A DNA stretch of 55,785 nucleotides from Candidatus Aminicenantota bacterium (GTDB lineage Bacteria; Acidobacteriota; Aminicenantia; Aminicenantales; Saccharicenantaceae), in contig VGJC01000003.1 of assembly GCA_016867635.1 (NCBI GenBank), forward strand, positions 1 through 55,785. The letters run 5' to 3'. Below, in pieces: positions 13,906 to 14,166 of the stretch. Each line of letters opens with the position of its first letter. The stretch's first letter is position 1. The notes beneath the pieces are model-generated. The model ran no database searches. It was not told where the DNA came from and was given only the letters and a program-made list of their open reading frames with translations. The translations under genes were made by a program, and so were the position numbers.

Positions 13906-14166
13906 CCTCGGGGATCGTCCTCGGTCGCTGCGGTGATTCCGGGCGCCTGCGAGGGGACCGGTCTCGGCGGCTCGCGAAACTCGCGGGATCCAGACCAGCC
14001 CTCAGGATAGCAGGCTCAGACATCGCGAGCCGTCCTCTTCGAGGATGCCCTCAACCGGCCCCCTCTCCGTCTGAATCACCGCTTTAGGCTCCTTCGGACG
14101 ATCCCCTCGGCCCTGGTTTCAGCGGAGGCCCTCGGTCGCTGCGGTGATTCCGGGCGCCTGCGAGGG
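13906..14166. repeat. Nested-palindromic intergenic repeat, copy 1, with 37-bp direct repeats (13919-13955 and 14130-14166)
   Basis: Paired arms ggggatcgtcc/ggacgatcccc, gcggtgattc/gaatcaccgc, gaggggaccggt/accggccccctc (1 mismatch), ggctcgcga/tcgcgagcc; near-identical to copies 2 and 3. Confidence 0.95.

What the first reader, a model, noticed from the sequence alone, without database searches (positions are those of the whole stretch)
13906..14166. Three-copy family of about 205-bp intergenic repeats (13906, 20899, 55664)
Nearly identical non-coding sequence occurs at 13906-14110, 20899-21103 and 55664-55785 (cut by the window end). Two copies start within 30 nt of a gene stop codon. Copy 1 lies between rlmB and accA. 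No transposase is visible. Three copies in 56 kb would imply many copies per genome if the density holds. This could be a MITE-like element, a structured RNA, or an architectural or termination element.
Basis: seen in the sequence. Interest (0 to 1): 0.8.

Follow-up and report, generated by a model that had tools for sequence, protein, structure and literature searches.

The report
Promoter-docked hairpin mobile element family
The repeated DNA is a copy of a long hairpin-forming mobile element without a gene of its own, scattered through uncultured Aminicenantes bacteria, which keeps its folded shape while its sequence changes and often sits just upstream of gene promoters.

Summary
Copies lie at 13904-14114, 20897-21108 and 55662-55785 (cut). 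The draft genome (2.66 Mb, Candidatus Aminicenantes) has 22 BLAST places plus 7 shorter relatives. All 13 genomes of the genus carry 1-41 copies.

Each copy folds into one long imperfect hairpin. Its arms covary, and its centre differs between species even at the same site. No transposase was found beside it.

In a related family of the same order, a covariance model trained only on this genus finds roughly 290-bp elements with GGTTCTCTTCC inverted ends and perfect 8-bp target duplications: a MITE. The ~200-nt forms share an apical internal loop, RUGUYUGA/GAGUU, with different covarying stems. Rfam has no match.

In the window's genus one end is sharp. At 14 of 50 independent sites it stops 3-4 bp before a -35 box (copy 1: 3 bp before accA's); control offsets average 1.5. 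The other end is ragged. No target duplication was found in this genus.

Best reading: a MITE-derived, hairpin-conserved non-autonomous element, a new variant of a known kind. The mobilising enzyme, and whether RNA or single-stranded DNA is selected, remain open.

The parts
13904..14114 (-). copy 1, full ~211-nt hairpin unit (folded strand = minus; sharp 3' end of that strand at 13904)
14115..14175 (-). linker and truncated second unit on the ragged side of copy 1
   Evidence: direct reading; BLAST match 14130-14175
13978..14022 (-). apical module of copy 1: TGTCTGAGC - stem-loop - GCGAGTT (internal loop RUGUYUGA/GAGUU)
13895..13900 (-). -35 box TTGACT of the accA promoter, 3 nt from the sharp end of copy 1
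   Evidence: promoter also present in relatives that lack the element
13872..13877 (-). -10 box TAGAAT of the accA promoter
20897..21108 (-). copy 2, full unit; sharp end abuts the stop codon of the AMP-binding ligase gene
21109..21143 (-). linker and truncated second unit of copy 2
20972..21016 (-). apical module of copy 2
55662..55785 (-). copy 3, cut by the contig end

Best explanation
A non-autonomous mobile element of MITE ancestry whose body is a single long hairpin. In one related Aminicenantes family it is a typical MITE: about 290 bp, inverted ends, 8-bp target duplications (shown). A transposase supplied in trans therefore moves, or moved, it by its ends (inferred; enzyme not found). 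The window's genus carries a diverged branch spread over dozens of intergenic sites. Its sharp end frequently lies 3-4 bp upstream of a -35 box (shown), either through target choice at promoters or because only such sites are tolerated (inferred). Copies within a genome have become alike while the hairpin centre differs between species at the same site (shown), most simply by recombination through the conserved arms (inferred). Pairing of the arms and an apical internal loop are kept while sequence changes (shown), so the folded single strand, as RNA or as extruded or single-stranded DNA, is under selection (inferred).
For: 22 + 7 places in this genome; 1-41 copies in all 13 genus genomes, 0 in 21 genomes of other genera of the family. 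Covariation: 17 of 43 and 13 of 69 pairs with double changes, 0/500 shuffles as high, slid structures lower. The genus-trained model R1, which lacks the apical motif, hits f2 elements that were selected by that motif (E 2.6e-9, 5e-6, 3e-4). Among 30 apical-motif copies examined, f2 copies have TIR GGTTCTCTTCCATTTC and perfect 8-bp duplications (TGATATAT, TTTAAATC, AGTTAAAG, ATAAATAT and others), 0 in six shuffled controls. -35 docking of the sharp end at 14 of 50 sites against a mean of 1.5, 0 of 136 on the other side. Empty and occupied orthologous sites at accA and at the site of L294. Genome-specific loops and shared sites with different centres.
Against: No target duplication in the window's genus (0 of 134 at 8/8; 9 against controls of 6-16 at 7/8). 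No transposase found next to any copy. One ragged end and tandem truncated units are not typical of a MITE. Only a subset of f2 copies show the duplication. The f2 and genus elements share little plain sequence outside the motifs, so their homology rests mainly on the covariance model and block order.
Confidence: 0.62

Rival explanations
1. It is primarily a structured non-coding or cis-acting RNA that works as a transcript and has been multiplied in the genome.
For: Covariation; 26 of 27 copies fold better on one strand; a conserved asymmetric internal loop on variable stems across families.
Against: No orientation preference relative to neighbours (22 same, 19 opposite, 26 divergent). Copies docked at promoters lie upstream of the transcript. 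The G-U versus A-C test is weak. No Rfam match. f2 relatives are MITEs.
Confidence: 0.14
2. It is a REP/REPIN-type element moved as single-stranded DNA by a Y1 transposase (RAYT).
For: Extragenic palindrome with conserved arms and variable centre, in genomes that all have Y1 transposases.
Against: The Y1 genes are flanked by another palindrome, GGGGACAYGTACC, and never by this hairpin. REPs are 20-40 bp with GTAG or CGTC tags and lie mostly between unidirectional and convergent ORFs (PMC3733652), unlike these 100-211-nt elements. f2 relatives make 8-bp duplications.
Confidence: 0.08
3. It is a promoter-linked DNA regulator (operator, insulator or upstream element) kept by the host.
For: Sharp end 3-4 bp upstream of -35 boxes; 5'-truncated copies keep this end at one promoter in three species, G000, G004 and G011.
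Against: Orthologous promoters often lack it (accA empty in 6 of 10 species with the site). Neighbouring genes share no function. Protein binding to duplex DNA does not explain covariation of the inner stems. Many copies face stop codons instead.
Confidence: 0.08
4. It is a retro-element inserted by target-primed reverse transcription.
For: Sharp 3' end and variable 5' end on the folded strand.
Against: No reverse transcriptase domain in 10 of 13 genus genomes, including this one and both copy-rich ones. Relatives have inverted ends with 8-bp duplications.
Confidence: 0.04

Closest known systems
MITEs (miniature inverted-repeat transposable elements)
   Same: Short, non-coding, dispersed, inverted ends; f2 relatives have 8-bp target duplications.
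   Different: No duplication found in the window's genus; one ragged end; the whole body is a hairpin whose pairing and apical loop are conserved; the sharp end docks at -35 boxes.
REP / REPIN / BIME extragenic palindromes with RAYT
   Same: Extragenic palindromes, conserved arms with variable centre, mosaic and tandem arrangements.
   Different: Five times longer, no GTAG or CGTC tag at the end, no RAYT association, often between divergent genes, f2 relatives make 8-bp duplications.
ISL3-family insertion sequences (possible source of ends; from memory)
   Same: Ends GGTTCTCTTCC and mostly AT-rich 8-bp duplications in f2 relatives look alike.
   Different: No transposase found; the resemblance was not tested.
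Rfam structured RNA families
   Same: Conserved fold with compensatory changes and a conserved internal loop.
   Different: No match in Rfam 15 for the window or for the relatives.

Membership tests
MITE | terminal inverted repeats | tested here: met
   f2: 9-12 of 12 terminal pairs; window genus: imperfect long arms
MITE | target-site duplication in f2 relatives | tested here: met
   perfect 8-bp duplications in several G093 and G092 copies, 0 in controls
MITE | target-site duplication in the window's genus | tested here: not met
   0 of 134 copies at 8/8; not above control at 7/8
MITE | autonomous transposon with the same ends | tested here: inconclusive
REP/REPIN with RAYT | Y1 transposase gene flanked by the repeat | tested here: not met
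   none of 16 Y1 loci carries the arms; three carry another palindrome
REP/REPIN with RAYT | 20-40 bp palindrome with terminal GTAG or CGTC tag | tested here: not met
   units of about 100-211 nt with end GGCC; definition from PMC3733652
Retro-element | reverse transcriptase in the host genome | tested here: not met
   PF00078 in 3 of 13 genomes, not in G000
Known Rfam RNA | match to a covariance model | tested here: not met
ISL3-derived element | DDE_Tnp_ISL3 transposase with the same ends | not tested

The most novel reading that the evidence does not exclude
The apical module (RUGUYUGA/GAGUU internal loop on a variable stem) is a previously undescribed structured nucleic-acid part that rides in otherwise different long-hairpin elements across phyla (it also tops a 230-nt hairpin in another Acidobacteriota genome, L536, and shorter hairpins in viral contigs L451 and L549), and in this genus the element is placed at a fixed distance upstream of -35 boxes by a promoter-sensing insertion mechanism.
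Probability: 0.25. Interest if true: 0.85.

Novelty: new variant of a known kind. Interest (0 to 1): 0.6.

Why it matters
Bacterial extragenic repeats are usually described either as MITEs (the DNA ends matter) or as REPs (the hairpin matters). Here one lineage shows MITE ends with target duplications, while a sister lineage shows a hairpin whose pairing and apical loop are conserved and whose end is positioned at promoters to within a base or two. That gives a natural test of how a short transposon comes to lie beside promoters, and of whether an element's folded single strand is itself selected. The docking may also shape the upstream region of many unrelated promoters in this group.

Tried and rejected
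Rfam at gathering and relaxed thresholds: nothing. Phage and plasmid collections: no match to the repeat. RAYT, reverse transcriptase and IS91 (Y2) partners: no association. A first gene-calling script was trained on antisense ORFs and gave wrong neighbours; it was replaced. 'Zero convergent gaps' looked dramatic, but convergent gaps are rare in these genomes, so it is weak evidence (P about 0.01-0.03). The G-U versus A-C test of which strand is selected is only suggestive (31 against 21 in shared pairs). The G045 copy first looked like spread to another family, but its 1.5-kb contig has flanks at genus-level identity to G004 and is probably misbinned. The apical pattern in IMG/VR is mostly chance, and outside the class most hits are at control level. 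A plain local alignment of genus and f2 elements outside the motifs is weak. Searches of papers for Aminicenantes repeats and for the sequence words gave nothing relevant.

Full report
What is there. The window comes from a draft genome of Candidatus Aminicenantes, Acidobacteriota (all 49 hits of an arm pattern in the species collection belong to this group, 45 by name and 4 titled 'Acidobacteria bacterium'; named protein relatives are Aminicenantes or Acidobacteria). The genome has 22 BLAST places and 7 more of about 137 nt. None of 77 copies examined lies inside a gene.

Anatomy. One strand (minus in the window) reads GGGCCGAGGGG ... GAGCNTAAAGCGGTGATTTAGCC [centre] GGCG..AATCACCGCAGCGA .. 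GACGATCCCCGAGGCC and folds into one hairpin. The arms are conserved over the genus, the centre is not: forms of about 103, 115, 130-132, 138, 152, 200 and 211 nt exist. Two alignments show pairing kept through double changes: 17 of 43 and 13 of 69 pairs, no shuffle as high, slid structures lower (the shuffles do not remove relatedness, so they are not probabilities). Conserved bulges are asymmetric, so simple arm-to-arm correction during replication does not explain the pattern (inference). Which strand is selected is less sure: 26 of 27 copies fold better on the minus strand, but the wobble test is weak.

Ends. One end (the 3' end of that strand) is sharp at CCCCGAGGCC. The other is often followed by a linker and a truncated second unit of variable length, or, in another class of copies, by an outer pair of arms. 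In 69 copies without outer arms the sharp end is followed at 3-4 nt by TTG[AC][ACT] in 21; with a -10 box scored too, 17-24 copies (by threshold) against about 0.1-2 in shuffles. Nothing comparable is seen at offsets 0-8 on the ragged side in 136 copies. Counting each orthologous site once: 14 of 50, against a mean of 1.5 at control offsets. In the window, copy 1 stops 3 nt before the -35 of accA. Relatives without the element keep the same promoter (G002, G003, G004, G005, G007, G009), so the promoter is older than the insertion. Where the sharp end does not face a promoter it often abuts a stop codon, as in copy 2.

History. Several sites are shared by species, with the same orientation but different centres: G002 130, G007 152, G011 103 and G000 137 nt at one site; G004 137, G011 138 and G000 210 nt at another. 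About ten shared sites have equal orientation and two opposite. Three measured pairs at shared sites (identity 0.84, 0.79, 0.67) are little or no more alike than other pairs between those genomes (means 0.78, 0.78, 0.74), while each genome tends to have its own apical loop. One promoter has the same junction in G004, G010, G011 and G012 with different truncations, and is empty in G005. Vertical inheritance plus replacement through the arms is the simplest account (inference); repeated insertion at hot spots is not excluded.

Relatives. The genus-trained model finds the family in all 13 genus genomes and not in 21 genomes of other genera of the same family. It also finds diverged forms in G039, of a different family, whose arms GGCCGGATTT/AAATCCGGCC stand where GCGGTGATTT/AATCACCGC stands here. 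The ~200-nt form shares with G039 an apical internal loop, AUGUCUGA/GAGUU. A pattern for it is multi-copy in further families (G093 22, G034 6, G092 4, G058 3, and G220 of the same class 3), with 0 control matches in the 95 order genomes and with lineage-specific stems. Elements of family f2 are about 283-295 bp MITEs: TIR GGTTCTCTTCCATTTC and perfect 8-bp duplications such as TGATATAT, TTTAAATC, AGTTAAAG and ATAAATAT, none in six shuffled controls (first seen); other f2 copies lack a visible duplication. The model R1, which never saw the apical motif, hits three of them at E 2.6e-9, 5e-6 and 3e-4, so the link does not rest on the pattern alone. Outside the class, L536 (another Acidobacteriota) has the module at the tip of a hairpin of -221 kcal/mol; viral contigs L451 and L549 have it on shorter hairpins.

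Partners. Y1 transposases occur in all seven genomes tested, but where a palindrome adjoins them it is a different one. Reverse transcriptase is absent from 10 of 13 genomes, IS91-type transposase is fragmentary, and the commonest families among flanking genes are not mobility genes. The ISL3 family is a guess from memory for the f2 ends; it was not tested.

Verdict. The finding is real: a MITE-derived, hairpin-conserved non-autonomous element. In the window's genus the target duplication that marks a MITE was tested and not found, so these copies are called MITE-derived, not MITEs. The unusual parts are the -35 docking of one end, the swapping of hairpin centres, and the conserved apical loop. 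The mechanism of docking and the selected molecule are open.

Noticed in passing
window 35465-35538, 35792-35865 and 31795-31880: A second, short palindrome family (GGGGACAYGTACC..GGTACRTGTCCCC) that looks like a REP; in three relatives (L147, L151, L152) it flanks a Y1 (RAYT-like) transposase, and in G000 it often abuts the hairpin elements.
   Followed up: partly
L074 / L040 and L364 (genome G005): Two hairpin copies carry the same ~105-nt insert with ends resembling IS200/IS605 (CCCCGGGCTTAAGGCCGGGG) at the same position in the arm, so either the inserted form has itself multiplied or the insertion is site-specific.
   Followed up: no
L203 (genome G007) 1993-2144: In G007 the hairpin tip of the 152-nt form is replaced by the other palindrome (GGGACACGTAC..GTACATGTCCC).
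   Followed up: no
L248 and L249, upstream of radC: A third palindromic family (GGTACTTCTCCC..GGGAGAAGTACC) occupies the gap that holds copy 2 in the window.
   Followed up: no
L024 (G045:C532): A 1.5-kb contig binned in another family has flanks 72-81% identical to genus G004 at the orthologous site; probably a misbinned contig.
   Followed up: partly
L536 (genome G393): A 230-nt almost perfect palindrome (-221 kcal/mol as RNA) with the same apical loop motif, in an Acidobacteriota genome outside the class.
   Followed up: partly
window 55662-55785; contigs G000 C58, C66, C200, C220, C282: The assembly breaks inside or beside hairpin copies, including the end of the window's own contig.
   Followed up: no
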